From Escarpia spicata (taxonomy: Eukaryota > Annelida > Polychaeta > Sabellida > Siboglinidae): 64,000 bases of DNA. The stretch spans positions 27,932,439 to 27,996,438 of the forward strand of contig OZ023210.1 of the NCBI GenBank assembly GCA_963995525.1, in the 5' to 3' direction. Each line of letters begins with the position of its first letter. Within the stretch, counting starts at the first letter, position 1. The notes under the pieces are model-generated. The model worked only from the letters and a program-made list of their open reading frames with translations. It made no database searches and was not told where the DNA came from. Shown piece by piece: positions 1-22,002 of this stretch. A program made the position numbers and the translations under genes.

Positions 1-263
1 CAATAATATTTAAAAAATATTAAAGATTGCATGGAAATAGTACACCGTTGCTAGAGTACGGTGATACAAGGACCGGTAGGAAACAATGATAAGAAGTTAC
101 GTAATAGGCAGTAAGGTGACAAGTTGTACGATCATAAAGCTAAATTGTCAACAAAAATTTATTCGTGGACGCAACCGTATAGGGAGTTAAGACGTTACCA
201 GATGACGATATGAAGGACATAGTAGGGGGGTCATAATCTCGGAAGCAAAGACGTGACAGAATA

Positions 264-611
264 TTATTTTAGGTGAAAGTATATAGTAAAACAATATAAA
301 GTATGACTAACCACAAGCACTTCCAACTTGGCCTCCTCGGCCGTCCTCTTCCGGCGGGCACAACATCCGCTGGTGATATGTTGCTTGGAATTACATTTCC
401 GTGTGAACGACCCCCCACAGTCGGGGCAGGTGAAGGGTCTCTTCGATGGTGGTAGATATCTCGGAGTCGGTAGGGACATCTCAGCAGCAACCATTCGAAT
501 CATATAACTCGAGTCTAATGTATCGCGAGGATGGTAATAGGGTATCTTCAACATGATGATGTTAGCCGTGGTGTCATCGTAATACGAATGACGGTCCGAT
601 TGGTAAAACAC
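264..611 (-). pseudogene. Small C2HC zinc-finger protein, copy 1 (degraded)
   Basis: The frame encodes one zinc finger, CPDCGGSFTRKCNSKQH followed by ITSGCC. That gives a C-x2-C-x12-H-x4-C spacing rather than a classic C2H2. A basic tail (ARRKRTAEEAK) follows, and the exon then runs into a splice-donor position. In the intact paralogue at 10.3 kb the donor reads GTG|GTGAGT; here it is GTG|GTTAGT. The ATG used by the paralogues (in an ACCATGG context) is ACG in this copy, so only an internal ATG a few codons later remains. A TATA box lies just upstream at 616-623. The product is probably nuclear and nucleic-acid binding, inferred from the finger and the basic tail. Lost start, weakened donor and internal deletion make this a likely pseudogene. 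Confidence 0.6.
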
Positions 612-615
612 CGCG

Positions 616-623
616 CTTATATA
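616..623 (-). promoter_or_regulatory. TATA box of zinc-finger copy 1
   Basis: TATATAAG reads on the minus strand within the conserved context CTATATAAGCGCGGTG. The same promoter core recurs at 4882-4889 (plus) and 10922-10929 (minus), each time about 50 bases before the homologous start codon. Conservation across three copies supports a real pol II core promoter. Confidence 0.65.
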
Positions 624-1132
624 GTTAGTAAATGTGCCGAAAAGTCACGTGGGCATGCCGAAAGATCACGGATTGTAGAGTAGAATGTACACACGCGCAG
701 ACTGCACGAGGACTGCAGAGTAGTTATTTAGTTCACAACTTATCTAACAAGGTGCTTTCAGTTGATGATATATCCACCAGGAGTAAGCACTCGACAAAAA
801 CAAGAGACACGAATTTTGGCAGTACTCATATGTGGTTCGCCCACTTGTGCACTAGGGGGATGATGTTTGTAGTTCATGATCTATCCGTAAGGGGGCTCCA
901 TTGCACGCAAGCGCACAAGAGACACCAATTTTGGCTGTACTCATATATTTAGTTCAACACTTGTCCCGCCAGGGATGATGTTTGTAGTTCATGATCTATC
1001 CGTCATGGGGCTCCATTGCACGCAAGCGTGCAAGATACACGAATTGTGGCAGTACTCGAACGTTTAGTTCGCAACTTATCCGCCAGGTGGCACCACTTGT
1101 AGTTCACGACATATCCGCTAGGGAAAATTTAG

Positions 1133-2009
1133 TAAGGGGGAGCTTTGAAGTATTTTGCGCTCTCTCAGACTTGATGTTTTATAAAGGTGACTTTCTGTTA
1201 CATATTACCAATACAAGGGGAATGCATTTTTTTCTTTAAAATACATTCATGGCAAGGTATACACATTGAGCTTTTCAACAGGGTATACCTTATTGACACT
1301 GATTTATAACTATCAATTTGTAGACAGTTTAGACTTTGCAGGTGTACGGTTTCATATAATTTACTTTTCAATACAATGGAGTAAGTTACTGGCGAGACCA
1401 TTGGACAACTCTAACTTGTTTTAAGAACGTTTTGGTATATATACGACAGCCTAAATTGATTATGTTAGTGATATGTAGGTGATTCTGTCGTATTCTTATT
1501 ATTCTAATTAAGAAAACGCCGGAGACGTACGGTTTCGTGTATCTCCTCTTATAATGTGTATTGTGTATTGACTGTCAAAAGGTCGTGATATAAGTATTTA
1601 AATTGGTTGTACAGACGTTACAGATACCATGCGCTGATGTTACTTCATATATTTTGCAAAAATATTGAGGTGTGGGCTAAGAAACTGGCGGAGACGTACG
1701 GTTTCTTGCTTATGTACGGTTTCAGTAGAACAGAGTATTTTTTCTTATTTGACCACTTTTTAATTAAACTTTGTCTACGTACATACCCGAGTGTAAAGCC
1801 ATTCCTATGAGTGTTCCATATATGTGTTTATCAATCATTCTTATCATTTTATTAATATACTGAATGATAGAACATGAATACAATGTTTTCATAACGTTAT
1901 TTATTTAAAGTTTAACCGACGACTTTTGTAATTTGTCGAAAGGTAATTTTAAGAACAATTAATGAAACTTGAACTGAATGTTCCAAAAGCACCACCGCTC
2001 TCTCATCCT
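1133..2009. other. Unassigned AT-rich spacer
   Basis: I see no convincing gene here. A short motif GGAGACGTACGGTTTC occurs near 1522 and again near 1690, suggesting an old local duplication. Open frames are short and AT-biased. Confidence 0.5.
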
Positions 2010-2348: not shown

Positions 2349-3413
2349 TCATCTCCTCTTCCCCTTCTCCAGCGCCAGTTGTGTGCTCTCCCAACCAAAA
2401 CATGTTGGATGGAACACTCCGCCCTTCGTGTAGCAGCAATCCTTGAAGCAGGAAGTACTGCAGATTTTCACGACTGGGCCCGGGACCACAACAGCACGGG
2501 TAGACATTATGCCACGGACTTCTGGAACATTCCATGTTTCGTTCTCATCCTTGCAGTCCTGGATGACTTCGATGGTTATCCCCAGAATGGACATGGTCGT
2601 GTTACTAGCACGAATTGCGTGGCAGAACTCTTGGCTCGTGGTGATTACTCTTCCAGCCTTCACTAGGTTGTCAGCCTTCCTTTTCATGCCACCACCCACT
2701 CCGTCACAGGGGCCTTTCTCGTGGCCAGCCTCCAACCAAGTCCACGAAGCTCTAAGACTGAACAGTGATGGAAATTTTGCAACTAGGGCACATATTGTGC
2801 GGTTCCGGTACTGTGAAGTTGGTGAGTCTGTGATGAAGTGCAGAGTCGACAGTTCCGGAAGGATGTCCTTGACTTCCTTCATCAGCGCTTTGATGAAAAC
2901 AAAAGTTGTCGACACAGTGTGAGCAGTGACACTTGCAATCCCCACATAGCTCTTGGCACAAAGCTTGCCGTCCTGCTTGAAATGTACCACCATTGGGTGT
3001 ATGGTCACCTGGGACTTGCCATAGTATACTGCCGTTATTTCGTCCTGGTATCTGCACACCCAGTTTTCAGCATAGTCCATCTGGACCGTTATCTCCGTTT
3101 TTTCCGCCATGGACTGCTTCAAGATGCGGATCTGGTGATATTGGGTGGTCACCCGGTGACAGTGCTCACGGAACTCAGCCATGCCGGATATGAATCGGTC
3201 AGTGAAGTATCTCGTAGTTTGTACAACTTGGGTCAGTTTCACCTTCTTGAAGACTCTGCCCTTGTGTTCACCACCTTGGACTTGCCATGTTCGGTACTGA
3301 ACTCCTGTCATTGAGAGGCCTTCAAGTTTTCCCCGGATTTCCAGGTCGGTCATCTCGACCAGCAGCGCGGGAGATTGAGGCAACACTTTTACGGCTTCGA
3401 CCATCAATGCCAC
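2349..3413 (-). CDS. Transposase-like protein, unclassified DDE-type family
   Basis: A 354-residue frame. A central block contains VQMDYAENWVCRYQDE, then ELSTLHFITDSPTSQYRNR, then TWLEAGHEKGPCDGVGGGMKRKAD. Asp of MDYAEN, Asp of FITDSPTSQ and Glu of WLEAGHEKGP are spaced like an RNase H-fold DDE triad. Proteins with this set of motifs recur as uncharacterised multicopy genes in aquatic invertebrate and fish genomes, as I recall, so a transposon origin is likely; the catalytic assignment is inference. A C-terminal Cys cluster (CSTSCFKDCCYTKGGVFHPTC) could bind metal. The start at 3413 is the first ATG of the frame; the N-terminal DNA-binding part expected of a transposase is not visible, so this may be a 5'-truncated copy or one exon. 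No terminal repeats could be assigned. Confidence 0.6.
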   Translation of the reverse strand: MALMVEAVKVLPQSPALLVEMTDLEIRGKLEGLSMTGVQYRTWQVQGGEHKGRVFKKVKLTQVVQTTRYFTDRFISGMAEFREHCHRVTTQYHQIRILKQSMAEKTEITVQMDYAENWVCRYQDEITAVYYGKSQVTIHPMVVHFKQDGKLCAKSYVGIASVTAHTVSTTFVFIKALMKEVKDILPELSTLHFITDSPTSQYRNRTICALVAKFPSLFSLRASWTWLEAGHEKGPCDGVGGGMKRKADNLVKAGRVITTSQEFCHAIRASNTTMSILGITIEVIQDCKDENETWNVPEVRGIMSTRAVVVPGPVVKICSTSCFKDCCYTKGGVFHPTCFGWESTQLALEKGKRR

Positions 3414-3640
3414 ATTGGCGTGGCGTTGGCAGAGACATTGGCGTCTCTGTATATATGAATCGCTGATTCATGCATATAAGTAGTAATGTAGGTGGTCCAG
3501 CGCGTATGGAATGATTTATCCGGAGCAAATCCCATGTTAAGGATAGGGATTTTCCTCCAGACCGCGCCAAGCGCTTACGCTAATGATTATGCAAATGAGC
3601 TCTTTGGCGCGCCCCGGAGTAAGATGAAGAAAGTAGTTCC

Positions 3641-4005
3641 GGTCCCATGTTAAAAGATAGGGAAATTTACCTATATTTTTCGAGGGTTCGATTTATCCCA
3701 AATGTCTTAAAAAACTGTCCTACCAATTTTCCCCATGTTAAAGGGTAGGGAATTTTCACCATGTTAAAGCATAGGAGCTATTATCGTAAACGTATGCGAC
3801 CACTTTTTGAATTTTCCCCATGTTAAAGGATAGGGAATTTTTACCATGTTAAAGCATAGGGAATTTTTACCCCATGTTAAAGCATATAGAATTATCCCAT
3901 GTTAAAGCATTGGGAATTTTCACCATGTTAAAGCATAGGGAATTTTTATCCATGTTAAAGAATAGGGAATTTTTACCCCATGTTAAAGCATAGGAGCTAT
4001 TATCG
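3641..4005. repeat. About 30-bp minisatellite (CCATGTTAAAG family), block 1
   Basis: Units around CCCATGTTAAAGCATAGGG plus AATTTT repeat with a period near 29-32 bases, interrupted by a unique segment GGAGCTATTATCGTAAAGG that itself recurs near 3776, 3991 and 4565. The same family resumes at 4541-4715, just outside the zinc-finger gene on the plus strand. Confidence 0.8.
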
Positions 4006-4540
4006 TAAAGGTATGCGACTGCTTTTTGAATAAAATAAAATATACCGAACAGCATTTGAATATGTCACACACTAGATTGCTAGACCCGTAGGCCGAGGCT
4101 CCGCCAAGGGATCGAGCCCTTATTTGGTTGACGATGACATGTCGAAAATGTGGTGTTATAATAATGCGTAATTTATAATAAAAGGATTATAAATTCAACG
4201 GAGGTCGTTTTATCTGAAGTAATGTATACGAAATGTAGATTACATCTAGGACTATGTTATATCAGAACCTATAGCTTCGTTTTTTTCGAACAGAGCGACC
4301 ATTTTAGAATTAGACCTTTGGTGGCTCTTATAAAACCCGTACTCGAGGCGTGATTGGACATGTTTGTTTGTTGCGAGCACGCGCACCCTGTATGACGTCA
4401 TTAAACTGCTACGCGTCGTAATGTTGTACGCGAGGTGATTTGGTCAAACAGGTAGTGTTTTGGTTAGACCTTGTATTGAACTTGCGCGTATATAATGTAA
4501 TCCCTTCATGTGACGTCATGATGGAGTGACGTCATTAGGG
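4006..4540. other. Non-coding spacer between minisatellite blocks
   Basis: No gene seen. The segment contains several TGACGTCA-type CRE-like palindromes (near 4393, 4512 and 4528), which might be regulatory, but there is no transcript start evidence beside them. Confidence 0.35.
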
Positions 4541-4715
4541 AATTTACTCCATGTTAAAGGATAGGAGCTATTATCGTAAAGGTATGCGACCCCTTTTTGA
4601 ATTTCCCTGTGTTAAAGGATAGGACATTTTCACCATGTTAAAGCATAGGGAATTGTTGCCCCATGTTAAAAGATAGGGAATTTTCCCAATGTTAAAGCAT
4701 AGGGAATTTTCTTTA
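4541..4715. repeat. CCATGTTAAAG minisatellite, block 2
   Basis: This continues the family at 3641-4005: repeated CCATGTTAAAG-CATAGGGAATTTT units, here with variants such as CCTGTGTTAAAGG. It borders the left arm of the large palindrome. Confidence 0.75.
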
Positions 4716-4881
4716 CATAGTAGAGTTGAACTTACTTCAAATGGTTGACTGTTTGCAAACTGGTTTGAACTGGTATTCGCTGTCCAAGTCTGATCTACTC
4801 TACAGTCTACACCTTTAATTTCTACTCCGAGGTCCGTGCTCGTTCGGCACGCCCACGTGACTTTTCGGCACATTTACTAAC

Positions 4882-4889
4882 TATATAAG
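4882..4889 (+). promoter_or_regulatory. TATA box of zinc-finger gene A
   Basis: TATATAAG within CTATATAAGCGCGGTG, 47 bases before the ATG at 4936 and preceded by CACGTG (E-box-like) and two TTCGGCAC motifs. The inverted copy at 10922-10929 has the same flanking motifs, including the mirrored CACGTGGGCGTGCCGAA. Confidence 0.7.
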
Positions 4890-4935
4890 CGCGGTGTTTT
4901 ACCAATCGGACCGTCATTCGTATCACGACGACACC

Positions 4936-5364
4936 ATGGTTAACATCATGTTGAAAACACCGAACTACCACACTCCTGCGGCCTTCAGCGACAGCGACGT
5001 AGACGAACCGTGTTGCCGACCGTTCGTGGTATCTGGCAGCCGACCACAGTCACTGGATGTCAACCGACCACCATCACCGTTGTACCACGATAACGCCAAC
5101 CTCAAAACACCCAACTACCATGCGCCTGCAGCCTTCAGTGACTGCGACGTAGACGAACCAACTAGCAACCCGACGTCTTCACCTCCGACGAAACGTCGGA
5201 AGCTTTTGCCTCGTTATACTTGCTATATGTGTGGCAATACCTTCAGCTGTAAAGGGAGTTGGAACGCTCATGTGAAGCAGGGCTGCTGCCAAAGGAAGCG
5301 AGATAAGCAGCGGCGGTGTAAAGAACAACTTGAAGAGCTAACAGTAAGCTTCAATTTCTCATAG
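4936..5364 (+). CDS. Small C2HC zinc-finger protein, gene A (left arm)
   Basis: Starts at ATG in a strong ACCATGG context. The N-terminal half contains two related blocks, LKTPNYHTPAAFSDSDVDEP and LKTPNYHAPAAFSDCDVDEP, an internal duplication of an acidic segment. After a basic stretch (PTKRRKLLPR, a plausible nuclear signal) comes one finger, CYMCGNTFSCKGSWNAHVKQGCC, with the same spacing as in the copies at 0.3 and 10.4 kb. A basic, Glu-rich tail follows. The codons after about 5343 read through a possible donor (ACA|GTAAGC), so the true C-terminus may be spliced; a poly(A) signal follows at 5631. The 3' part matches the 3' UTR of gene B but lacks its Cys-rich exon. Likely a nuclear DNA- or RNA-binding factor encoded by the repeated element; function unknown. 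Confidence 0.6.
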   Translation: MVNIMLKTPNYHTPAAFSDSDVDEPCCRPFVVSGSRPQSLDVNRPPSPLYHDNANLKTPNYHAPAAFSDCDVDEPTSNPTSSPPTKRRKLLPRYTCYMCGNTFSCKGSWNAHVKQGCCQRKRDKQRRCKEQLEELTVSFNFS

Positions 5365-5630
5365 TGTTCAAATGCTATTCATGTCATTTAGTTAGAACAT
5401 TTTCAAAAATTAAAGACTGGTTGACTGTCTGGAACAATACCACAACCAAGTATCCGAACCGAATTTGTTGGACCCACAAGGCTCCTCGCCGTATGGCAGG
5501 GAAGACTGAAGTAGTGGTATGCGGTATCGTCTTGTACACGATTAAACTTTGCAAGACTCTGTATCAATGTCTAGTATTTGGTTCCTGTAGTTATGGAGTG
5601 TGACATGTAAATACGTTTGTGTTGTTCACG

Positions 5631-5636
5631 AATAAA
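5631..5636 (+). terminator. Poly(A) signal of gene A
   Basis: AATAAA followed by GT-rich sequence. The region 5570-5655 is the reverse complement of 9585-9665, where the equivalent signal of gene B sits, so both genes share the same 3' end. Confidence 0.65.
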
Positions 5637-5857
5637 CTGTGCAAACCTCATCTTGTGTCTTTTTCATAGTGTAATGCAAAGCATACGTTGGGAACCTTAC
5701 TCATTGTCTTGCACTTCACAAGTAAAGAGACTATCCGTATTGTCAATAATAAGGTCATTGATTTGCGTAAAACAGGTTCGTGTACGATATGCAAGACACA
5801 CGAACTGTACCATAGATCAACCTTAACCAAACTATGACGAATACGGAACTAGTACAT

Positions 5858-6130
5858 TGTACGAATTGACCTCAGACCAACTAGTTGTACAAACGAAACA
5901 CTATGCTTTGACCAACACGCGGCACGAATTGAACTCAGACCAACTAGTTGTGCAAACGAAACACTATGCTTTGACCAGCACGCTGCACGAATTGAACACA
6001 GACCATCTAGTTATACAAACGAAACACTAAACTTAGCCGAACAAGTGGTACGAATTGAACACACGGACAAACGAAACACTACACTTTGACCAACAGGTTA
6101 CACAAATTGAACTTAAACCAACTAGTCGGG
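5858..6130. repeat. About 69-bp tandem array, left arm
   Basis: About four units containing CAAACGAAACACTA and ACGAATTGAAC. The core CAAACGAAACAC appears in reverse complement throughout 9060-9520, the corresponding position of the opposite arm of the palindrome. Confidence 0.8.
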
Positions 6131-6139
6131 CAAACGAAA

Positions 6140-6990
6140 CACTAAACTTAACAGGTTATCACGTCAAATTCCCTCAAAAGGGAGCAAATAGACGGGTCAT
6201 CGCGTGAGATTCCCTCAAAAGGGAGTAAATAGACAGGTTATCACGTCAATTTCCCTCAAAAGGGAGCAAATAGACGGGTTATCGCGTGAGATCCCTCAAA
6301 AGGGAGCAAATAGACGGGTTATCGCGTGAGATTCCCACAAAAGGGATCAAATAGACGGGTTATCGCGTGAGATCCCTCAAAAAGGAGCAAATAGACGGGT
6401 TATCACGTGAGATTCCCTCAAAAGGGAGCAAATAGACGGGTTATCGCGTGAGATCCCTCAAAAGGGAGCAATTAGACGGGTTATCCCGTGAGATCCCTCA
6501 AAAGGGGGCAAATAGACGGGTTATCGCGTGAGATCCCTCAAAAAGGAGCAAATAGACGGGTTATCACGTGAGATTCCCTCAAAACAGAGCAAATAGACGG
6601 GTTATCGCGTGAGATCCCTCAAAAGGGAGCAATTAGACGGGTTATCGCGTGAGATTCCCTCAAAAGGGAGCAAATAGACGGGTTATCGCGTGAGATCCCT
6701 CAAAAGGGAGCAAATAGACGGGTTATCGCGTGAGATTCCCTCAAACGGGAGCAAATAGACGGGTTATCGCGTGAGATTCCCTCAAAAGGGAACAAATAGA
6801 CGGGTTATCGCATGAGATTCCCTCAAAATGGAGCAAATAGACGGGTTATCGCGTCAAATCCCTCCCCTTTCAAGCAATTCGACGTGTTATCGCGTGATAT
6901 CTCACCGCTTGCAAACAATTCGACGTGTTATCACATGACATCTCACTGCTTTCAGGCAATTCGACGGGTTATCGCGTGACATCTCTACCA
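6140..6990. repeat. 40-41-bp tandem array, left arm
   Basis: Roughly 20 units containing GACGGGTTATCGCGTGAGAT then CCCTCAAAAGGGAGCAAATA. The last units degenerate into forms with CAATTCGACG. The consensus contains the small palindrome CCCT-CAAA-AGGG. The reverse complement of the same core (ATAACCCGTCTATT) dominates 8442-8960 on the other arm. Confidence 0.9.
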
Positions 6991-7224
6991 AACTTGGCGC
7001 ACGAGACTACGGCCGAGACATTGCACGAGACTACGGACGAGACATCGCATAAGACTACGTGTGCCAAGAACCATTCCGTTGTTTACATTTGAACAGTAAA
7101 GTATATCAGCTACCAACAATCCTACATCATTATCATCACGTGCAGTCTTCCAGTACCCAGATTGTAAGAGACATTTCACACGTCGAGACAACTTGAAACG
7201 ACACAGAGTCCTCAGACCGACACC

Positions 7225-7990
7225 ACTCAATGGACACCAATGTAATTAGTCAGGGTATTGCCATCTACTGACCATGATAGATCTCTATTCGTTGACACAC
7301 TTCCGCGAATACCGGAAGCATAGAGGCCGCCATGACAGTCAAGTAACTTCCGGTGCGACGTCAGTCCCGACGTAGCGTCCCTAGTAGAGGCTGCCATAGC
7401 AAGTGAATTTGAAAACTGCTATGATCGAAAACGACTATGTCAATAACATGAAAGGACAACCACCTGACAGGACTTCATTCAAAGAGGTGACCATCATGGT
7501 TCCCGACGCTACTCAACGGACACCAATGTAATTAGTCAGAGTACTGCCATCTACCGGTCATGATAGATCTCTATTCGTTGACACACTTCCGGGAATATCG
7601 GAAGCATAGAGGCCGCCATGACAGTCAAGTAACTTCCGGTGCGACGTCAGTCCCGACGTAGCGTCCCTAGTAGAGGCTGCCATAGCAAGTGAATTTGAAA
7701 ACTGCTATGATCGAAAACGACTATGTCAATAACATGAAAGGACAACCACCTGACAGGACTTCATTCAAAGAGGTGACCATCATGGTTCCCGACGCCACTC
7801 AACGGACACCAATGTAATTAGTCAGAGTATTGCCATCTACCGGCCATGATAGATCTCTATTCATTGACACACATCCGGGAATATTGGAAACGTAGAGTCC
7901 GCTATGACAGTCAAGTAACTTCCGGTGCGACGTCACTTCCGACGTAACGTCCCTAGTAGAGGCCTTCATGACAGTCAATAAATTTCCGGT
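7225..7990. repeat. 286-bp tandem repeat (about 2.7 units)
   Basis: Units start with ACTCAA at 7225, 7511 and 7797, giving two exact 286-base periods. Each contains CACTTCCGG-type motifs and the CRE-like GACGTCA. A mirrored fragment (CATTCCCGGAAGTGTGTC) lies at 8298-8315, consistent with the palindrome arrangement. Confidence 0.85.
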
Positions 7991-8101
7991 ACGACGTCAC
8001 TTCCGGCGTAGTGCCCCCTAGTGGATAATCGGAGTACTACGTCACATGATGACGCCTTCTAGCGGGTAAAAATATATAATTAGGTTAGATAGAGAAAATA
8101 A

Positions 8102-8158
8102 GTTGAGGTTAATCTCGCGAAAATTTATACAACCACTTTTCGCGAGATTAACCCCAAC
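8102..8158. repeat. Central 22-bp inverted repeat (hairpin)
   Basis: The arm at 8102-8123 (GTTGAGGTTAATCTCGCGAA plus AA) and the arm at 8137-8158 are reverse complements with one mismatch, separated by a 13-base loop. The hairpin lies near the symmetry centre of the two gene-bearing arms. Such a stem could be a replication or resolution structure, or simply the junction where two arms met. Confidence 0.8.
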
Positions 8159-8330
8159 AGTCTAAGTATAAGTTCCGACTAGTGAATTGGTTACCCGTTA
8201 GATGGTGCCCGCCTATTTATAGACATGGAGCGCTACGCTAGAAGTTCCGTCACACCTTAAGTCATGTGACTGCAATGGCTGACTCTATAGTTCTAACATT
8301 CCCGGAAGTGTGTCGACGATGGAGTAGTTA

Positions 8331-8800
<470 letters not shown>

Positions 8801-8960
8801 AGAGGAGGGGTTTGATGCGATAACCCGTCTATTTGCCTGAAAGAGGAGGGGTTTGATGCGATAACCCTTCTATTTGCCTGAAAGAGGAGAGATTTGACGC
8901 AATAACCCGTCTATTTGTCTGAAAGAGGAGGGATGTCATACAATAACCCGTCCATCTCAA
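8801..8960. repeat. About 42-bp tandem array, right arm
   Basis: About four units of TCTGAAAGAGGAGGGGTTTG followed by ATGCGATAACCCGTCTATT. The reverse complement of the core matches the terminal units of the array at 6850-6990. Confidence 0.8.
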
Positions 8961-9059
8961 TCCCTCCTCCTCCTCGCTTTTAGCGTTTCAGCGCGGTAGA
9001 TTAGTAAATCTCATCCGTAGTCTCGTGCGATATCTCGTCAGTTGTCACAGTAACCAGTC

Positions 9060-9520
9060 TATTCCGAGTGTTTCTTTTGTCCGACAAGTTTGTTTCTTGT
9101 CACTCGTTGATCTAAGTGTTTGGTGTTTAATTTGTCCGATAAGTTTGGTTCTTGTCACTCGTTGATCTAAGTGTTTGGTGTTTCGTGTGTCAGACAAGTT
9201 TGTTTGAATGATTGGTTCTTGTCACTCGTTGATCTAAGTGTTTGGTGTTTCGTTTGTCCGACAAGTTTATTTCTTGTCACTCGTTGATCTAAGTGTTTGG
9301 TGTTTCGTGTGTCAGACAAGTTTGTTTGAATGATTGGTTCTTGTCACTCGTTGATCTAAGTGTTTGGTGTTTCGATTGTCCGACAAGTTTATTTCTTGTC
9401 ACTCGTTGATCTAAGTGTTTGGTGTTTCGTTTGTCAGACAAGTTTGTTTTTTGCCACTCGTTGATCTAAGTGTTAGGTGTTTCGTTTGTCAGACAAGTTT
9501 GTTTGAATGATTGGTTCGTG
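9060..9520. repeat. About 55-68-bp tandem array, right arm
   Basis: Seven or so units with TTGTCACTCGTTGATCTAAG and GTGTTTGGTGTTTCG. Some units carry an extra GAATGATTGGTTC. The reverse-complement core CGAAACACCAAAC corresponds to the array at 5858-6130. Confidence 0.85.
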
Positions 9521-9601
9521 CATCTCGCGAGTCAACTTTTGATTCGTGGAATTCGTGGATTTAGTTTGGTTAAGTAAAGACACAAGATAAGGTTTGCACA
9601 G

Positions 9602-9607
9602 TTTATT
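9602..9607 (-). terminator. Poly(A) signal of gene B
   Basis: AATAAA on the minus strand in a block that is the reverse complement of the gene A 3' end. It lies about 115 bases after the stop codon at 9723. Confidence 0.65.
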
Positions 9608-9722
9608 CGTGAACAACACAAACGTATTTACATGTCACGCCCCATAACTACAAGAACCAGAGACTAGACATTGATATAGAGTCTTTCAAAGTTTAATCGT
9701 GTACAAGACAAAAGAAAGTTCT

Positions 9723-10875
9723 CTACAGGTCACCCTCCATTACTGTCAGAACCATTAAATTTTGTTTCATAGTGTTTCGCCACTGTTTCGAAACGGATTC
9801 TTGCAACCAAGTATTGATATTACACAACTGTTCGACTGTCACGTCGGATAGCTTCACACCTGCGTCTAACAAAACACTCAAACAGTCTTTCACCACCGCA
9901 ATTGAATTAATGGTCTCGACAGCCTCGTCAAAGTACATGCAAATTTGAATGTCATCAGATAACATACAATCGTGATGACATTGACTAGGATGGTCTATCT
10001 TGCAACCACGACATTGTCGTCTTGAGAGTTCAAAGATGCTACATGCTATGTGACGTGCAAGCGTCTTCTTCATTTCGATAACAGGGGAATCAACGGTGAT
10101 ACAAGGACCGGTAGGAAACAATGAGAAGAAGTTACGTAATAGGCAGTAAGGTGACAAGTTGTACGATCATAAAGCTAAATTGTCAACAACAAAATATCCG
10201 TGGACGCAACCGTATAGGGAGTTAAGACGTTGCCAGATGACGATTTGAAGGACATAGTAGGGGGGTCATAATCTCGGAAGAAAAAGACGTGACAGAATAT
10301 TATTTTAGGTGAAAGTATATAGTAAAACAATATAAAGTATGACTCACCACAAGCACTTCCAACTTGGCCTCCTCGGCCGTCCTCTTCCGGCGGGCACAAC
10401 ATCCGCTGGTGATATGTTGCTTGGAATTACATTTCCGTGTGAACGATCCCCCACAGTCTGGGCAGGTGAAGGGTCTCTTCGATGGTGGTAGATATCTCGG
10501 AGTCGGTAGGGACATCTCCTCAGCAGCATCCGTTCGAACCATGATATACATGTCAGAGGCTACGCAACCGTGTCGTTCGCATTACAAAGGTCCCCTATTG
10601 TCGACAATCATACGCTTCTTGCAGTATCAGCACCCGATGTAGAAGGGAGTATGCTTGCGTACTTTGTCCATAGGGAAACCTATGCCCTTGATAACAGGGT
10701 CGGCGCATACCATTGATTCTAGATTTGGCACGTTCACGACCTCTGGTTCCTATGGCGGAGAAGGACGGTTGGTCACCGGTATGATGGGTCGGCTCGTTGG
10801 CTCGTCTTCGTCGCTCGAGTCTGCTGCATCGCGAGGACGGTAATAGGGTATATTCAACTTGATGTTATTAGCCAT
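9723..10875 (-). CDS. C2HC zinc-finger gene B (right arm), split and possibly broken
   Basis: Starts at the ATG at 10875 (ACCATGG context). The first segment encodes MANNIKLNIPYYRPRDAADS then an acidic stretch like that of gene A, but a TAG follows after about 41 codons. The zinc-finger exon (10551-10348) carries CPDCGGSFTRKCNSKQH and ends at a good donor, GTG|GTGAGT. A 3' exon within 10157-9723 holds RRQCRGCKIDHPSQCHHDC, a Cys/His-rich motif I recall from repetitive genes in cnidarian and mollusc genomes, then an alpha-helical tail and a stop. The exact acceptor is unresolved. Stops between the first segment and the finger mean either further introns or decay. It is the inverted partner of gene A and shares promoter and 3' end with it. 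Confidence 0.5.
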
Positions 10876-10921
10876 GGTGTCGTCGTGATACGAATGACGG
10901 TTCGACTGGTAGAGCTCCGCG

Positions 10922-10929
10922 TTTATATA
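10922..10929 (-). promoter_or_regulatory. TATA box of gene B
   Basis: TATATAAA on the minus strand, in the same promoter block as at 4882 and 616. It is flanked upstream by TTCGGCACATTCACTAA and the CACGTG motif. Confidence 0.65.
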
Positions 10930-11099
10930 GTTAGTGAATGTGCCGAAATGGCACGTGGGCGTGCCGAAAGATCACGGATTGTACAGTAGAAAATTCAAAA
11001 GCACGGACTGCAGAGTAGAATGTACACACGCGTAGACTTCACGCGGACTGCAGAGTAGTTATTTAATTCACCACTTATCTAACAGGGTGCTTTCAGTTG

Positions 11100-11564
11100 A
11101 TGATATAACCACCAGGAATAAGCACTCGATAATAACAAGAGACACGAATGTTGGCAGTACTTGCACGCTTGCATGTAATGGAGCCCCATGACGGATAGAT
11201 CATGAACTACAATCATCATCCCTGGCGGGATAAGTGTTGAGCTAAATATATGAGTACTGCCAAAATTGGTGTCTCTTGCGCGCTTGCGTGCAATGGAGCC
11301 CCCTTACGGATAGATCATCAACTACAAACATCATCCCCCTAGTGGACAAGTGGTCGAACCACATATGAGTACTGCCAAAATTCGTGTCTCTTGCACGCTT
11401 GCGTGCAATGGAGCCCCATGACGGATAGATCATGAACTACAAACATCATTCCTGGCGGGACAACTGTTGAACTAAATATAGCAGTACCTCGAACGTTTAG
11501 TTCATAACTTATCCGCCAGGTGGCACCACTTGTAGTTCACGACATATCCGCTGGGGAAATTTAG
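11100..11564. repeat. Upstream repeat block with an internally inverted segment
   Basis: Units of about 115 bases (GGAGCCCCATGACGGATAGA, then GATCATGAACTACAA). Compared with copy 1 (700-1132), bases of about 11159-11482 are in reverse orientation while both flanks are collinear. GGCAGTACT lies at one junction and GCAGTACC at the other. Confidence 0.75.
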
Positions 11565-12043
11565 TTCATAAAAATTCCACCTAGGTGGCTCTGTTTTAAT
11601 TTTCATAAAATGTCCGCCAGATGGCGCAACTGGTCAAGCTAAGAAGCACGAATTTGCATGACAAGATTAATTTTACTGTTAAAAAACACATTTTGGCAAA
11701 ATCATACATATAACGCATATAACGCGCATGCGTCTGAATAATACATTTAAAGGAGATGTCGCACCATTAGTGCATTTTAAACTTATCATAACTGAGAGAA
11801 GTAAAAATGTGTAAATGAACATTTCAAAAAGAAAAAGTGTGTAAAAAAGCAAAAAAACACCAAAAAAACATTCATACATATAAAGGTCGCTTAGAGTAGA
11901 TTATGTATTGTTTGCACAGTCATATAAGGAGATAGTGCCTGATGATAGCCAGGTAACACATATTGCTGCATTATTCGCGCAGTAACACGAGAAGAAAATA
12001 CCTAATGATAGCCAGGTATAACACTCTGGCATTTGACGCACAG
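11565..12043. other. AT-rich spacer
   Basis: No gene seen. A short direct repeat (GATAGCCAGGTA with GCGCAGTAACACG-like flanks) occurs near 11945 and 12010. Confidence 0.4.
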
Positions 12044-14559: not shown

Positions 14560-14865
14560 AGTAGTAGTAGTGTGGTTAAGGCCCCCGTGTAAAAAGGTCA
14601 TGTACCCAAGATCAAAGAAAGATCAAAGAAATAGGCTCCGCCCCAAAACAAATTCCTAAAACTTAGCATCTATACAGAAAAAGTCAACATCAAAGGATTT
14701 TGCACTTTTTCCTAAAACTTAGGAGCGGAACTAAATACCCTTAATTACCCTTAATTACCTTTGATTGATAGGACCACCCAACGACGCTGACCCGTTGCCC
14801 TTTAGTGTGTGTTTCTTTTTCTATGCGTGATTGACAGACCCAACGACAAATCAGAGGCTTGGAAT
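14560..14865. repeat. Left terminal inverted repeat
   Basis: Matches the reverse complement of 31776-32091 with scattered substitutions and small indels. Internal features are a doubled GATCAAAGAAA, a doubled CCTAAAACTTAG and a run of ACCCTTAATT. The right copy carries about 20 extra bases near CGTGTAATGTATGTG. Confidence 0.93.
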
Positions 14866-14902
14866 CCGCCCAGCCGTATTAATGATTGGCTACTAAGGCT
14901 AC

Positions 14903-14909
14903 TATATAG
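14903..14909 (+). promoter_or_regulatory. TATA-like box of the NADAR gene
   Basis: TATATAG lies 45 bases before the ATG at 14948 and just inside the left terminal repeat. Position and spacing fit a pol II core promoter for the rightward block's first gene. Confidence 0.5.
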
Positions 14910-14947
14910 TATGGGCGGCCGGTGACGTGAACAGTAGCAGCTTGGCG

Positions 14948-15403
14948 ATGACTCCCGCTATACATTTCCGTGGGAGTGCATCGTTCCTGTCGAACTGGTA
15001 TCCGTGTCGAGTGGCGGCGTATGGTCGGGGCTTCAGATCCGTAGAGCACGCTTATCATTTTAGAAAAGCGATGTTTCACGACGATACCCAAACCGCTGAG
15101 TGTATCAAAGAGGTGTGGTCGGGGTATAGCGCAAAACGCCGAAGTTCCAGAATCGAGAAAAAGAGAACGAACGCCGAATGGTACGCCGTTAGGGTCGCGT
15201 GCATGAAGTCCCTGCTGATGAGCAAGTTAGGGGGGTCAAAGAAGTTGAAAGACGCCCTATTGGCTACCGGGAAAGCCGAATTGGTGGAATGGGTGCCGTC
15301 GCACGATGCCTTCAGGGGTATTGGCATTGGCGACAGAGAGGGACACAATATGCTCGGTAAATTAGTGATGGAGGTGCGCGAGGAGCTTAGAAGAAACGAA
15401 TAA
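14948..15403 (+). CDS. NADAR (YbiA/DUF1768-like) domain protein
   Basis: A 151-residue protein, almost entirely one NADAR domain. Family signatures in order: FRGSASFLSNWYPC near the N-terminus, FRSVEHAYHFRKAMF, then WYAVRVACMKSLL, LLATGKAELVEW, SHDAFRGIG and GHNMLGKLVMEVREEL at the C-terminus. NADAR proteins bind ADP-ribose-type ligands; known members are N-glycosidases acting on riboflavin intermediates or removing ADP-ribose from modified guanine. Here it is intact, sits first in the rightward block and has its own TATA-like box. NADAR is not a core Polinton gene, so it is likely captured cargo. A role in countering host ADP-ribosylation or NAD-linked defence is inference. The ATG is preferred over an in-frame GTG seven codons upstream. 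Confidence 0.85.
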   Translation: MTPAIHFRGSASFLSNWYPCRVAAYGRGFRSVEHAYHFRKAMFHDDTQTAECIKEVWSGYSAKRRSSRIEKKRTNAEWYAVRVACMKSLLMSKLGGSKKLKDALLATGKAELVEWVPSHDAFRGIGIGDREGHNMLGKLVMEVREELRRNE

Positions 15404-15441
15404 AGTCGGCGGTCGCGGCCGCGTGCGCGACAGTCGTAGAT

Positions 15442-16063
15442 ATGAGCGTGCTTTTGAAGCATCCGTTTACGTGTATAGTGGCCGGTCCCACGGGGTGCAG
15501 CAAGACTACTTTCGTCGCTCGTCTAATACGGCATTCGGCCGCCATAATCGAGCCGCCGCCCGAGAAAGTCCTGTGGTGCTACGGCCAGTGGCAGGACGCC
15601 TACAAGACGATGCCGCCTACAATAGAATTCGTAGAAGGCCTACCGGATCCGACGTGTTTAGAAGGCAAAACGAGGGCGCTTCTAGTGCTCGATGACCTCA
15701 TGGAGGAAACCAATAGTCGGGTCACGACACTGTTTACAACAAAAAAACCATCACTGTAACACGTCCGTCGTACAGTTGCTGCAGAATATGTTTCCGAAAG
15801 GAAAAGAGAGCCGCACGATTAGTCTGAACGCCCAATATATGGTACTATTCAAGAGCCCCCGGGATGCCGGTCAAGTAAGTCACCTAGCAAAACAGATGTA
15901 TCCGGGTAAGGTTGACTACATGATCGAGTCTTTCAAAGACGCCACGTCGGCCGCGTACGGCTATCTTTTCGTAGATTTGAAACAGGAAACGGAGGAGTCC
16001 ATGCGCATGCGCACGTGTATATTTCCGGACGACCGCCTAAAGTACGCCTACGTGAGGCGATAA
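15442..16063 (+). pseudogene. FtsK/HerA-type DNA-packaging ATPase (A32-like), frameshifted
   Basis: The N-terminal frame has a Walker A at residues 15-22 (GPTGCSKT) and a Walker B near residues 79-86 (ALLVLDDLM). The second half continues in another frame with LLQNMFPKGKESRTISLNAQ, typical of Polinton and large DNA virus packaging ATPases. The frames part at an A7 run at 15741-15747; a one-base error or indel there would explain the break. In this group the ATPase drives genome entry into the preformed capsid. It starts at an ATG 38 bases after the NADAR stop, so both probably belong to one rightward gene block. The total span (about 207 codons) is the usual family length. Confidence 0.88.
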
Positions 16064-16103
16064 AAGGAGGGCGCCGTCACCGGGAGCGTCATTCGCTTTA
16101 AGG

Positions 16104-16460
16104 ATGACGGACCGCGTGAAGAGGCATGTCCTGGCATTGCAGCTGCTGAGTCGTACTAAGAAGAACGTCGCACTGCGAAAGGCCGTAATCGCCCACGCCG
16201 ACGCCGACCTAGTGTGTAGTCTGTGCGATTGCGCATACAACATTCTGATAGGGAACGTGAAAATATCGGCGAAGCAGAAAAAAGTACTGGCAAAATACAA
16301 GAAGCACTTGCGTAAGCTGGGGAACAAAAAGGTGCCCGTCAAACAGAAACGGGCCATTCTGCAAACGGGGTCGGGCGCCTTTCTGACGGCCCTGCTGGCA
16401 CCGTTAACAAGCACCGTTTTACTGCCCCTGCTCAGACAGACTTTCGGCGGGGAAAAGTGA
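16104..16460 (+). CDS. pX-like core/virion protein
   Basis: 118 residues, very basic (repeated KK, KQK and RK pairs), ending in a glycine-rich hydrophobic tail: KRAILQTGSGAFLTALLAPL then TSTVLLPLL. The pattern of basic body followed by GxFLxxLLxP resembles the C-terminus of adenovirus core protein pX and the equivalent Polinton/adintovirus protein. It probably condenses or coats DNA within the virion; I infer this from that resemblance. Intact frame, 40 bases after the ATPase, four bases before the next start. No other catalytic motif is visible. Confidence 0.65.
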   Translation: MTDRVKRHVLALQLLSRTKKNVALRKAVIAHADADLVCSLCDCAYNILIGNVKISAKQKKVLAKYKKHLRKLGNKKVPVKQKRAILQTGSGAFLTALLAPLTSTVLLPLLRQTFGGEK

Positions 16461-16464
16461 GAGG

Positions 16465-17133
16465 ATGCAGCACGCAAAGAAGATGGCGTTGGTCGATCCG
16501 CGATTGGTGGAGAGCCTACTGCCGCTCATCGACCAACCGCCGAGCACGACCCGGTCGCGTGCGATGAGTAGCCTGGACAGTGACATGAAAAACGTTCTAG
16601 AACGATCGGATTTATCGGACCACGATAAGGCGGTGTCGTACAATAAACTGTTGGGCCGCTACAACGCGCTAGAGGCGGCCCGAGCGGCGCAGCCAGTACG
16701 CGTGTCGGTGGTGAGCGAGTCGACGCCGGCGGAAACAGAGGCGACAACGCCGCCGCCCTCGGACGCCATAGAGCGCGAAATAGTGGACAGCTTGCCGAAA
16801 ACCCTGAAAGCGAAAGCCGGCCGACTTATTGCAAAAATGAAATCCGATCCGCTGTGTCGATGGAACGACCGCGGCGAGTTCGTGTACGACGGTCGAACGG
16901 TTAAGGGGAGCAACATGGTCGACCTCGTGAACGACCTTATGCGAACACGAAAGAAGATGACCCCTCCTGTGGGGTGGCAAACGTTCGGGGAGCGTATGAG
17001 GGGACTGAACGTGCCTATGGAGTTCGTCGGTAACCCCCGGTATCGGAAGGCCATGCAGCAGTCGAAATGGGTAGAAGAGACGGCGCCGACGCCGGCTAAG
17101 CCCATTCGGCTCGGCGAGACGTGGACGCAGTAA
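16465..17133 (+). CDS. Conserved Polinton protein of unknown function
   Basis: 222 residues. The N-terminal block MALVDPRLVESL is followed by SLDSDMKNVLERSDLSDHDK and AVSYNKLLGRYN, a helical segment I recall from many Polinton-like loci. A Pro/Thr-rich linker follows (about residues 80-100), then a C-terminal domain with WNDRGEFVYDGRTVKGSNMV and DLVNDLMRTRKK. The second half resembles a small DNA- or capsid-associated domain, but I cannot name it. Intact and tightly spaced after the pX-like gene, it is likely a virion or assembly factor. The internal ATG at 16483 could be the true start. Confidence 0.6.
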   Translation: MQHAKKMALVDPRLVESLLPLIDQPPSTTRSRAMSSLDSDMKNVLERSDLSDHDKAVSYNKLLGRYNALEAARAAQPVRVSVVSESTPAETEATTPPPSDAIEREIVDSLPKTLKAKAGRLIAKMKSDPLCRWNDRGEFVYDGRTVKGSNMVDLVNDLMRTRKKMTPPVGWQTFGERMRGLNVPMEFVGNPRYRKAMQQSKWVEETAPTPAKPIRLGETWTQ

Positions 17134-17207
17134 CACAGGCGGAGGACCGCCGTTAAAAAACGCCGTAGCGAAGCGCCGGAGTGGGAGACGTCGTCTTAAG
17201 ATCAGCA

Positions 17208-17372
17208 ATGCGAAGGTCGGTGATCGTCGTCGTAGACGCCACAGTGCTTGTCCTTGTCTACGTCGGCATATTGGTGTGCGTCAATCGTGATTGTTTATCA
17301 ACGCTGTCATGGTGTCCGGGTGGACTCGTGGCGCTAAACGAAAGCGTCGTCAACGAGATGATCCTCTTCTGA
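17208..17372 (+). CDS. Possible small membrane protein overlapping integrase
   Basis: 54 codons from an ATG: two arginines, then a hydrophobic stretch SVIVVVDATVLVLVYVGILV long enough for one membrane span, then a Cys-containing polar tail. It overlaps the 5' end of the integrase gene in another frame. Small overlapping membrane ORFs are common in viruses, but this could be chance. Low confidence. Confidence 0.25.
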   Translation: MRRSVIVVVDATVLVLVYVGILVCVNRDCLSTLSWCPGGLVALNESVVNEMILF

Positions 17373-18411
17373 GGCGCGCCTATTACGACCCGAAACAGGC
17401 GGGCAGCTATGGCGGCGTTGACGCATTGTATAGGGGGGTCGCATCACGCAAACCGATCTTCGAGCGGTGGCTTCCGGCCCAAGATACGTACACCCTGCAC
17501 AAACCGGTTAAACGAAAGTTCAAACGATGCTGCGTTATCGTCTGCGGTCGAAACCAGCAGTGGCAAGCCGATTTGGTCGACGTCGCTACACTGAAAAAAT
17601 TCAATGATGGCATAACGTTTCTATTGACGGTTATCGACGTCTTCTCGAAGCGGGCGTGGTGCGTCCCGTTGAAGAGTAAGTCGGGCTTGTCCCTCGTCGC
17701 GGCCTTCGAGACCCTGTTGCAGGCGGAACGACCGCTGCACGCCCTGCAGACGGATAAGGGGACGGAGTTTCTCAACGCGCCCCTACAGAAACTCTTCAGG
17801 AACCACGGCGTTCGCCATTTCGTGACGCATAACGAGGAGACTAAGGCGAGCGTCGTGGAACGTTTCAATAGGACGCTGAAGACGCGCATGTGGCACTATT
17901 TTATGAAACATCAGACGCTGCGACACGTAGAGGCGTTGCCACATCTCGTACGATCGTACAACAACGCCTACCATCGAAGCATCGGCAGGACGCCGGCGAG
18001 CTTAACGCCGAAAACCAGGAGAACGTATGGCAACGACTGTACGGGGGCGCCTCCGGCGGCGGTAAACCGAAACTGCGAGAGGGAGACCGTGTGCGCATCA
18101 GCAAGGTGAAGGGTCGATTCAGAAAAGGGTACATGGCTAACTGGAGCGAAGAGCTCTTCACCATCGTAGAGGCGCATCCGTCCGAGCCGCCCGTGTATCG
18201 GCTGGAGGACGATGCCGGGACGCCGGTAGAGGGCACCTTTTACGAGGAGGAAGTACAACGCGTGATCGTCCCGAAGGACAAACTGTATCGCGTGGAGGAC
18301 GTTCTACGGCATCGTAAGGGGGGCACTGAAGTGCTCGTGAAATGGAGCGGTTATCCGACCTCGTTCAACAGCTGGATCGACGCCGGGGCGCTCGTGGACT
18401 ATAAAGGGTAG
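17309..18411 (+). pseudogene. Retroviral-type integrase with C-terminal chromodomain, frameshifted
   Basis: From the ATG at 17309. The rve catalytic core shows the three acidic residues: Asp in QWQADLVD, Asp in LQTDKGTEFLN and Glu in KASVVERFNRTLK. After IGRTPASLT the frame changes (near 18000); the second frame continues with VWQRLYGG, an SH3-like segment (REGDRVRISKVKGRFRKGYM) and a chromodomain (YRVEDVLRHRKGGTEVLVKW then SGYPTSFNSWI). Polinton integrases insert the element by cutting and strand transfer, leaving 6-bp duplications as seen here; the chromodomain may steer it to methylated histone H3. One indel breaks the gene. Confidence 0.93.
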
Positions 18412-18492
18412 GGCGGTCGTGGCGTCGACGGACAGTCATGTGGACGCGCCACATGGGGTGCTGGCGCCTACACGAGGCGGGCCTATGCAACG

Positions 18493-18501
18493 GTTTATAA
18501 A
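18493..18501 (+). promoter_or_regulatory. TATA box before the membrane-protein gene
   Basis: TTTATAAAGG lies 46 bases before the ATG at 18539 and inside the region that would otherwise be read as the 5' end of a longer frame. It argues for the downstream start. Confidence 0.55.
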
Positions 18502-18538
18502 GGCCCCTGCTGCATTGAGAGACCGCAGTGGCGCAACG

Positions 18539-18892
18539 ATGACCGACGGGGCGACATCCAACGAGACGCCTACAAGCGGGCGGCCTACAACATACGTCGG
18601 GGAAGCCGACGAAAACGAGTCAAGCGCCTTCGCGATCGACGCCGGCGCGGAATCCGTCGACGCGTCCGCGCCTATCACCCCCCCCCCCCCCGTCCGCGAA
18701 CACGCTCCATGGCATTTCTTCGGGAGCGACTGCCCTAAATCCGAGATCATCTTCATATGCCAGGTCGTCGTCCTGTACTCGGTCATCATCGTGAGTATAT
18801 ACAATCTGTCGAGAGGTCAGGGCGACTCCAACCTGTGGACGGCCCTGATGAGTAGCTGTCTCGGCTACCTGCTCCCGAGTCCGTCTATATGA
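18539..18892 (+). CDS. Polinton C-terminal membrane protein
   Basis: 117 residues from the ATG after the TATA box. The N-terminal half is acidic, Thr/Ser/Pro-rich and probably disordered; the second half has SDCPKSEIIFICQVVVLYSV and IIVSIYNLSRGQGD, then LWTALMSSCLGYLLPSPSI, i.e. one strong membrane helix and a second amphipathic one. The CPKSEI...SSCLGYLLP signature recurs in Polinton and adintovirus loci between the integrase and the minor capsid gene. Function is unknown; a virion-membrane or entry role is conceivable. A C-run (about 14 bases near 18679) encodes prolines and is an error-prone site. The reading frame could begin earlier with GTG at 18419, which I reject for lack of an ATG. 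Confidence 0.65.
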   Translation: MTDGATSNETPTSGRPTTYVGEADENESSAFAIDAGAESVDASAPITPPPPVREHAPWHFFGSDCPKSEIIFICQVVVLYSVIIVSIYNLSRGQGDSNLWTALMSSCLGYLLPSPSI

Positions 18893-19727
18893 TGACTTCG
18901 TCTGACTTTTACCTGGTCCTGCCGAGCAACGCGTCCATGAAGGAGCACCCCGAAAACACGTTGACTCACTACACCACGAAGCTGCCGCGGCGCATCGACC
19001 TGTCGGGCCAATGGGAGTGCGGTATGGTAAATCTACAGTACCCGCACACGTGGTACAACGTGAGGGTCGCGGACTCGTACTTTCACCTGGCCTGCAGGAC
19101 GGCGTCGCCCAATACACTGTTTAACTTTGGCGGCGAGACGGTTTTCCGACAGGGGCAAATTCCTTACGGGTTTTACAACAGCGCTTACGAGCTGACGCGA
19201 GAGCTCAACGAGGAACTGGTGAAACTGAGCACCGACGCCGTCAAGGCACGCCTGACGTACAGCACCATCACCAACCGGATGACGCTATATATATCGCAGG
19301 GTGTCGAATTTCGCTTGCCGCCCGATAGCCGGCTGAAGAACGTGCTAGGTTTCGAATCGTCCGTCATCGTGAGCCCAATCTTGGGACCGTCGGCCGGCAG
19401 CGGAAACGCCACCTATTCCTACGAGCACGAGGGCTCGCATACGGTGGACATGAACGCTGGTATCGACACGCTGTACGTGTACACCGATATCGTGGAGACG
19501 CGCATCGTCGGCGACACGTTTGCCCCGCTCCTTCGACCCGTCGCCATCTTCGGGCTGAACGGGGCGACTATTTCGAACTCGTTCGCATTCAATACGTGCC
19601 CCTCCTGAGGCGCCAATTCGAGACGGTCGAGATCGATATAACGGACGATTCGGTCAACCGATACCATTCGAGGGGGGGGGAAACTCGTGACGACGCTTCA
19701 CATCAGACGCTGCAAATCTAAACTGTT
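18892..19727 (+). pseudogene. Minor capsid protein (penton-like, single jelly roll), broken near its C-terminus
   Basis: The first frame (ATG at 18892; an adjacent ATG at 18895 is possible) encodes SDFYLVLPSNASMKEHPENT followed by LTHYTTKLPRRIDLSGQWEC, the standard N-terminus of Polinton minor capsid proteins, then YPHTWYN and a beta-rich body to FAPLLRPVAIFG. It stops at 19608, but coding resemblance continues in other frames: PLLRRQFETVEIDI, and after a G9 run (about 19670-19679) a segment ending LHIRRCKSKLF. At least two frameshifts therefore interrupt the last 40 or so codons. The protein would form the pentameric vertex of the capsid, beside the major capsid protein. Confidence 0.87.
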
Positions 19728-20150: not shown

Positions 20151-20157
20151 GGGAAAA

Positions 20158-21464: not shown

Positions 21465-21465
21465 C

Positions 21466-21909: not shown

Positions 21910-21951
21910 ACATTATTATTATTGTCGCTTTCCGCTTACTGTATTCGCACT

Positions 21952-21957: not shown

Positions 21958-22002
21958 AAAGCAAAACGATGAAAACGTACATGGTGTGAGTATACATTTT
22001 TT

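What the first reader, a model, noticed from the sequence alone, without database searches (positions are those of the whole stretch)
4700..11100. Giant imperfect palindrome with two inward-facing zinc-finger genes: candidate undescribed element
Seen: genes A (plus, 4936) and B (minus, 10875) have homologous promoters (TATATAAG, CACGTG, TTCGGCAC), homologous N-termini, equivalent C2HC fingers and 3' ends that are reverse complements (5570-5655 versus 9585-9665). Between them the arrays 5858-6130, 6140-6990 and 7225-7990 have reverse-complement counterparts at 9060-9520, 8442-8960 and 8298-8315, in mirror order around about 8.13 kb. Part of a third arm lies at 58-1132. Inference: a foldback-type element, or two copies of a larger element or virus joined through long inverted ends that carry a gene.
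Basis: partly seen in the sequence, partly recalled or inferred. Interest (0 to 1): 0.82.

Follow-up and report, generated by a model that had tools for sequence, protein, structure and literature searches.

The report
Old hairpin-centred inverted pair of genes
A 6-kb stretch of what looks like animal DNA is an ancient, worn mirror-image duplication, centred on a small hairpin, of a gene from an unnamed multi-copy family related to a DNA-replication protein; the mirror image is real, but nothing shows that it is a new jumping element.

Summary
Between the two arms (4700-8100 and 8101-11600) blastn finds 38 inverted and 0 direct matches, and no inverted match in 100 shuffles. They run from the promoters to the innermost repeats, around a hairpin at the centre (21 pairs, 13-base loop). 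Mirror order is broken once. The outer flanks share no exact 9-base direct or 10-base inverted word, so 'foldback element' is not established.

The genes are more informative than the palindrome. Gene B is a decayed relative of proteins that join a replication-protein-A C-terminal domain to an unnamed helical domain with the motif C-x-G-C-x-x-D-H-P-S-Q. In B a C2HC finger follows an RPA remnant with two stops. Gene A keeps promoter, finger and 3' end; no HPSQ domain was found in it. A relative on another contig (P0103) runs from an HPSQ tail into an inverted piece of the same family.

Best reading: an old fold-back (tail-to-tail) inverted duplication of a multi-copy unit with satellite arrays, later reshuffled. 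Whether the unit is mobile is open: the host-genome search gave no answer in 17 tries.

The parts
58..1133 (-). third, partial copy: promoter, C2HC finger exon, intron; cut at its left end near 58
   Evidence: blastn to 10093-10542 (96%), 10814-11161 (82%), 11481-11565 (94%); 432/446 over exon and intron
4843..4938 (+). core promoter and 5' UTR of gene A (E-box, TATA 4882, initiator-like TCATTC 4914; element names recalled)
   Evidence: 87/96 identical to B, 92/96 to third copy; positions
4936..5361 (+). gene A exon 1: duplicated N-terminal motif and C2HC finger; no HPSQ domain found downstream
   Evidence: ORF and motif; finger; tblastn of 120 relatives on 5331-5760 gives only short weak matches, best E 6e-4
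5529..5662 (+). 3' block of gene A with polyadenylation-like AATAAA
   Evidence: 126/134 identical, inverted, to 9576-9709
5858..6150 (.). array I, left (63-bp units)
   Evidence: TRF 5861-6060; inverted match of 6015-6150 to the right array
6154..6985 (.). array II, left (41-bp units, two subtypes)
   Evidence: TRF; inverted matches to 8443-8965
6998..7042 (.). CGCACGAGACTACGG block, out of mirror order
   Evidence: inverted match to 9009-9046
7121..7216 (+). remnant of a C2H2-type finger (PDCKRHFTRRDNLKRH)
   Evidence: Pfam zf-C2H2 E 2.1e-4, 22 bits, below the curated cut-off of 25.2
7217..8001 (.). 286-bp repeats and inner block, left
   Evidence: TRF 7217-7963; 7855-8001 inverted to 8181-8324, 0 of 200 shuffles as high
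8107..8153 (.). central hairpin, 17 exact pairs; the fold extends it to 21 pairs with a 13-base loop
   Evidence: DNA fold of 8090-8170 -20.4 kcal/mol, z -8.1, 0 of 200 shuffles as good
8181..8324 (.). inner block, right
8333..8441 (.). (AC) microsatellite without a left counterpart
   Evidence: TRF
8441..8955 (.). array II, right (51-bp and 41-bp units)
9009..9046 (.). CGCACGAGACTACGG block, right
9068..9504 (.). array I, right
9576..9709 (-). 3' block of gene B
9723..10085 (-). gene B HPSQ-domain exon
   Evidence: 28 of 29 candidate proteins match at E<=0.01; a profile reaches 158 of 7997 scored candidates
10351..10545 (-). gene B C2HC finger, before a GT donor-like site near 10347 (read by eye)
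10534..10845 (-). gene B N-terminus and RPA-like zinc-ribbon remnant with two in-frame stops
   Evidence: tblastn of P0075 residues 9-115, 42.6%, E 9e-18
10873..10968 (-). core promoter and 5' UTR of gene B
11160..11487 (.). 115-bp array upstream of B, inverted relative to that of the third copy

Best explanation
The locus is an old tail-to-tail inverted duplication of one multi-copy genomic unit: promoter, N-terminus, DNA-binding module, HPSQ exon, 3' block, array I, array II, inner repeats. Shown: the arms are inverted homologues, in blocks, from promoter to near the hairpin; the hairpin is at the centre; B is a decayed RPA-plus-HPSQ relative; and all three copies carry the C2HC finger. Inferred: the duplication arose when a broken end folded back at the short inverted repeat GGTTAATCTCGCGAAAA and primed its own copying. 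Later the arrays expanded independently, the coding middles were lost or exchanged, and gene conversion or constraint kept the promoters and 3' blocks alike. Also inferred: the ancestral protein bound single-stranded or structured DNA through its RPA-type domain, with the HPSQ domain as a zinc-binding helical partner.
For: 38 inverted and 0 direct arm matches, 0 inverted in 100 shuffles. Inner homology reaches within about 106 and 28 bases of the hairpin. Hairpin z -8.1. RPA-HPSQ relative P0075: PF08646 30.9 bits, cut-off 28.5, and TIGR00617 rpa1 positions 452-549 at 22.3 bits, far below that model's whole-protein cut-off of 334.2. B aligns to P0075 residues 9-115 at 42.6% with two stops. P0103 carries an HPSQ tail followed by a match to the antisense of B's RPA piece: 17/36 identical, 36.2 bits against a best of 19.2 in 200 residue shuffles. 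Member counts up to 45 in one 90% cluster (P0035). Fold-back inversions with hairpin intermediates are documented in yeast (PMC7467729, passages), and human inverted duplications have short inverted sequences at the boundary of an unduplicated spacer (PMC3907307, passages).
Against: One block is out of mirror order and the AC repeat has no partner. Identity is uneven: 94% at the 3' block, 75% inside, 65-72% in array II, so a single event needs later conversion or constraint. The human junctions described have spacers of 766 bp or more, not 13 bases; short loops (median 3-4 bases) are described in yeast mre11 and sae2 mutants. The hairpin could be a small separate insertion. Coding middles of A and B show no significant inverted match.
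Confidence: 0.55

Rival explanations
1. A foldback-type DNA transposon: long composite inverted ends with internal tandem repeats, moved by a transposase supplied elsewhere, its outer ends now eroded.
For: Inverted arms with tandem arrays and rearranged modules, as in Tm1 and Tetris. A 372-aa ORF without a Pfam family (2349-3467) lies nearby beside other repeat arrays.
Against: No exact 9-base direct or 10-base inverted word shared by the outer flanks searched, though an eroded or 8-base duplication would be missed. Homology ends inside asymmetric sequence. Genes lie in the outer arms, whereas Tetris is described with TIRs around a middle domain without apparent coding capacity. The third copy ends inside the gene, not at an end shared with A and B.
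Confidence: 0.17
2. Two independent insertions or cluster copies of the same repeat unit that happen to lie tail to tail; the hairpin is a separate small element.
For: A third copy lies about 4 kb away in B's orientation, so copies cluster. The 115-bp arrays are inverted between copies, so local inversions occur here. Mirror order is broken.
Against: Inverted homology in the non-genic inner block on both sides of the hairpin needs both units to end at nearly the same central point.
Confidence: 0.2
3. Concatemer junction of a linear element or virus with hairpin ends, terminal repeat arrays and genes in its inverted ends.
For: Hairpin centre, then arrays, then inward-facing genes on both sides; RPA-like gene remnant. 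The likeness to hairpin-ended viral genomes is recalled.
Against: No viral relatives found. No replication enzyme was seen in 1-12 kb among the ORFs given to Pfam. The arms are far apart in sequence.
Confidence: 0.06

Closest known systems
Fold-back inverted duplications (yeast, human; PMC7467729, PMC3907307, passages seen)
   Same: Two inverted arms meeting at a short inverted repeat with an unduplicated loop
   Different: Here the arms are old and diverged and embedded in repeats; the loop is 13 bases, while the human spacers are 766 bp or more
Foldback transposons Tm1 and Tetris (PMC3169594, PMC4079207, passages seen)
   Same: Inverted arms built of tandem repeats with variable copy numbers
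   Different: No terminal repeats or target duplications found at the outer flanks; genes in the outer arms
Helentron/HINE elements of oysters (PMC7492417, passages seen)
   Same: Satellite-like arrays and a short palindrome; many plant Helitrons carry a single-strand-binding-protein gene (start of the abstract of PMC4683698 in the listing; that it is RPA-like is partly recalled)
   Different: No Rep/helicase seen near; arrays occur in both arms and not once between two flanks
RPA1 C-terminal domain (Pfam PF08646)
   Same: Relative P0075 passes the Pfam cut-off; B keeps a piece matching it
   Different: Fused to the unnamed HPSQ domain; in B the piece is broken and followed by a C2HC finger

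Membership tests
Foldback (FB) transposon | Inverted arms containing tandem repeats | tested here: met
Foldback (FB) transposon | Outer termini flanked by 8-10 bp target duplications | tested here: inconclusive
   no exact 9-base direct word between 4600-4800 and 11010-11700 and no 10-base inverted word between 4600-4830 and 10990-11700; four 8-base direct matches against 2.7 expected. Eroded or 8-base duplications cannot be excluded
Foldback (FB) transposon | Dispersed copies sharing the same ends | not testable with these tools
   The genome search unanswered in 17 tries; the third copy in the window does not share both ends
Fold-back inverted duplication | Inverted arms meeting at a short inverted repeat with a loop | tested here: met
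   homology stops about 106 and 28 bases short of the hairpin
Fold-back inverted duplication | Uninterrupted mirror order | tested here: not met
   CGCACGAG block out of order, AC repeat unpaired; could follow later rearrangement, but lowers the claim
Helentron/HINE | Rep and helicase genes, or subterminal repeats with 3' palindrome | tested here: inconclusive
   no Rep/Hel among the ORFs given to Pfam in 1-12 kb; subterminal repeats not tested
RPA1 C-terminal family (PF08646) | Profile match above the curated cut-off | tested here: inconclusive
   relative P0075 30.9 bits, cut-off 28.5; the window's piece is matched only through P0075
Virus | Homologues in viral collections | tested here: inconclusive
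   none found, but animal viruses may be thin in these collections

The most novel reading that the evidence does not exclude
The HPSQ family is an undescribed class of animal mobile element. A constant promoter and 3' block frame an exchangeable DNA-binding module (RPA-type OB domain or C2HC finger) plus the HPSQ domain, and its proteins act on the element's own hairpin and satellite arrays, so copies spread as hairpin-centred inverted pairs. P0103 would be a second such pair, on another contig.
Probability: 0.12. Interest if true: 0.75.

Novelty: new variant of a known kind. Interest (0 to 1): 0.4.

Why it matters
The palindrome is most likely a fossil of a known kind of repair accident. The gene family is the part worth following: a multi-copy family that joins an RPA-type domain to a confidently modelled helical domain, for which the members scanned gave no family above a curated cut-off in Pfam or NCBIfam and only weak PHROGs matches. 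If it proves mobile, it would add a class of element that carries a single-strand-binding module and tends to form inverted pairs.

Tried and rejected
Host genome: the genome search 'own' was sent the same request 17 times; each time the answer was that the machine is busy or cannot be reached.

Relatives: gene A's exon 1 found none (1 candidate, none at E<=0.01). The HPSQ exon and its alignments found none in viral contigs or prokaryote contigs, nor did P0075 in viral contigs. Rfam gathering scan 0 matches, ARAGORN with bacterial code 0 genes.

Families: weak matches set aside. Pfam: the window's HPSQ exon to MCR_gamma, E 0.023, under the cut-off; P0111 to ORC_WH_C, E 0.0038, 17.8 bits against 26.4, and three weaker ones; P0105 to P2, E 0.088. 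PHROGs, all of unknown function: P0113 E 0.014, P0075 E 0.018, third copy E 0.033, window exon E 0.056. NCBIfam: P0108 to ribo_bS22, E 0.08, and third copy to rubre_like_arch, E 0.034, both under the cut-offs.

Papers: the listings of searches showed no title or abstract start describing this family; one search returned 0 papers and mostly met an unrelated acronym. The searches are few, the listings were cut, and the library is partial, so this is weak evidence of absence. Searches were for mechanism and foldback elements.

Rejected: the RPA piece as an intact exon (two stops). Exon 2 of B beginning upstream with ITVDSPV: I saw no acceptor AG between the in-frame TGA and the later AAG, read by eye; splicing is therefore uncertain. 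Selection on the finger: B and third copy differ by 2 synonymous and 0 non-synonymous codons after MSLPTP, too few to test.
Full report
WHAT IS THERE. The window carries reverse-transcriptase ORFs and separate integrase-core and chromodomain ORFs, so the host is probably an animal; this is inference, and no tool named it. Within 1-11.6 kb lie three copies of one gene unit: A (plus), B (minus) and a partial third copy (minus, 58-1133). A and B face each other. The blastn comparison of 4700-8100 with 8101-11600 gives 38 inverted and 0 direct matches at E<=1e-3, and no inverted match in 100 dinucleotide shuffles of the right arm. The matched blocks, from outside in, are the promoter and N-terminus, the 3' block, array I, array II and an inner block. 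A more sensitive alignment places 7855-8001 against 8181-8324, with a score of 87 against a best of 43 in 200 base-order shuffles. At the centre is a hairpin of 21 pairs with a 13-base loop, z -8.1. Its 17-base stem word occurs nowhere else in the window, up to 3 mismatches.

WHERE THE MIRROR FAILS. A short block (CGCACGAGACTACGG) is on the central side of array II on the left and on the outer side of it on the right. The AC repeat at 8333-8441 has no partner. No significant inverted match was found between the intron/exon-2 stretches of A and B or between their exon-1 bodies (28 and 30 of 200 shuffles scored as high), nor for the short stretches between the arrays and beside the 3' blocks (132 and 19 of 200). 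The outer flanks searched share no exact 9-base direct word and no 10-base inverted word; four 8-base direct words are near the 2.7 expected. B's upstream 115-bp array has no partner beside A in the blastn lists, and the third copy carries that array inverted. Identity is uneven: 87/96 in the core promoter, 126/134 in the 3' block, 102/136 in the inner block.

THE GENES. A, B and the third copy share TATA, initiator-like, E-box and TTCGGCA elements at matching positions, and a C2HC finger of one spacing, CX2CX12HX4C. Individual finger matches to Pfam are weak (best for A E 0.0033, for B E 0.0041, for the third copy E 0.0092, all under the curated cut-offs). B's second exon encodes a domain that matches 28 of 29 candidate proteins in a 5.8-billion-protein search; a profile of 21 sequences matches 158 of 7997 scored candidates at E<=0.01, 120 of them listed. 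Its conserved core is C-x-G-C-x-x-D-H-P-S-Q with later H and C. The members scanned gave no family above a curated cut-off for that domain in Pfam (P0002, P0007, P0010, P0075, P0105, P0108, P0111 and the window exon) or NCBIfam (P0075, P0108, P0113 and the window exon), and only weak PHROGs matches of unknown function. Of the 120 listed proteins, P0075 alone bears a precomputed Pfam domain, the RPA C-terminal domain, which lies ahead of the HPSQ domain. B's first exon aligns to P0075 residues 9-115 with two in-frame stops, after which the C2HC finger takes over. So B is a decayed and rearranged member of an RPA-HPSQ family. A keeps the outer parts and the finger; no HPSQ domain was found between its finger and 3' block beyond short weak matches (best E 6e-4).

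HPSQ DOMAIN. A model built on 34 sequences with P0108 first is confident (pLDDT 90.7, pTM 0.82) and all-helical. Fold comparisons are told under Tried and rejected; they leave the fold undecided.

HOW IT PROBABLY AROSE. The simplest account that covers the non-genic inner homology and the central hairpin is a fold-back inverted duplication: a broken end folds at a short inverted repeat and primes copying of itself. This is documented in yeast (PMC7467729, passages) and supported in human (PMC3907307, passages). Array growth, loss of coding parts, and conversion or constraint at promoter and 3' block then gave the present state. P0103, from another contig, ends its HPSQ reading frame in sequence that matches the antisense of B's RPA piece (17/36 identical, 36.2 bits; 200 residue shuffles reach 19.2). 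Of 120 relatives compared with 1-12 kb at E<=0.01, only P0075 and P0103 match outside 9600-10150, the stretch of the HPSQ exon. P0103 is one further tail-to-inverted junction in the family; one case only hints that such pairs recur.

WHAT IT IS NOT SHOWN TO BE. Foldback transposons such as Tm1 and Tetris are described with terminal inverted repeats and target duplications (passages). Target duplications were looked for as exact words and not found, which is inconclusive for an old locus. Viral origin has no support in any of six searches. Helentron membership is undecided.

LIMITS. The host genome could not be searched, so copy number, pairing and ends in the host are unknown. High copy in relatives is inferred from cluster sizes, up to 45 (P0035). 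Splice sites were read by eye.

CHANGED ON CHECKING.

Noticed in passing
14560-32091: Polinton/Maverick-like element: inverted ends of 331 aligned columns at 87%, starting AGTAGTAGTAGTG, with TACGTC on both outer sides; integrase-core and chromo ORFs; DNA polymerase B only weakly seen (PF03175 E 0.18, under the cut-off). The family name and its hallmarks are recalled.
   Followed up: partly
60608-62331: A second large palindrome: a 24-bp repeat array in two inverted halves meeting near 61225.
   Followed up: no
51241-58819: A 3.8-kb direct duplication at 91% identity with a reverse transcriptase/RNase H ORF 52479-53081 in one copy.
   Followed up: no
2349-4711: 372-aa ORF without a Pfam family beside CCATGTTAAAGCATAGGGAATTTT-like arrays at 3725-3994 and 4602-4711; possibly another DNA transposon.
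   Followed up: no
800-1117 and 11160-11487: 115-bp array flipped between the third copy and copy B, with possible breakpoints in a repeated GAGACACGAATTTTGGCAGTACT-like word.
   Followed up: partly
1077-1092, 8012-8027, 11510-11525, 11611-11626: TATCCGCCAGGTGGCA-like words, 4 in the window (2 exact, 2 with 3 mismatches) against 0.32 expected; they resemble a CTCF site (recalled).
   Followed up: no
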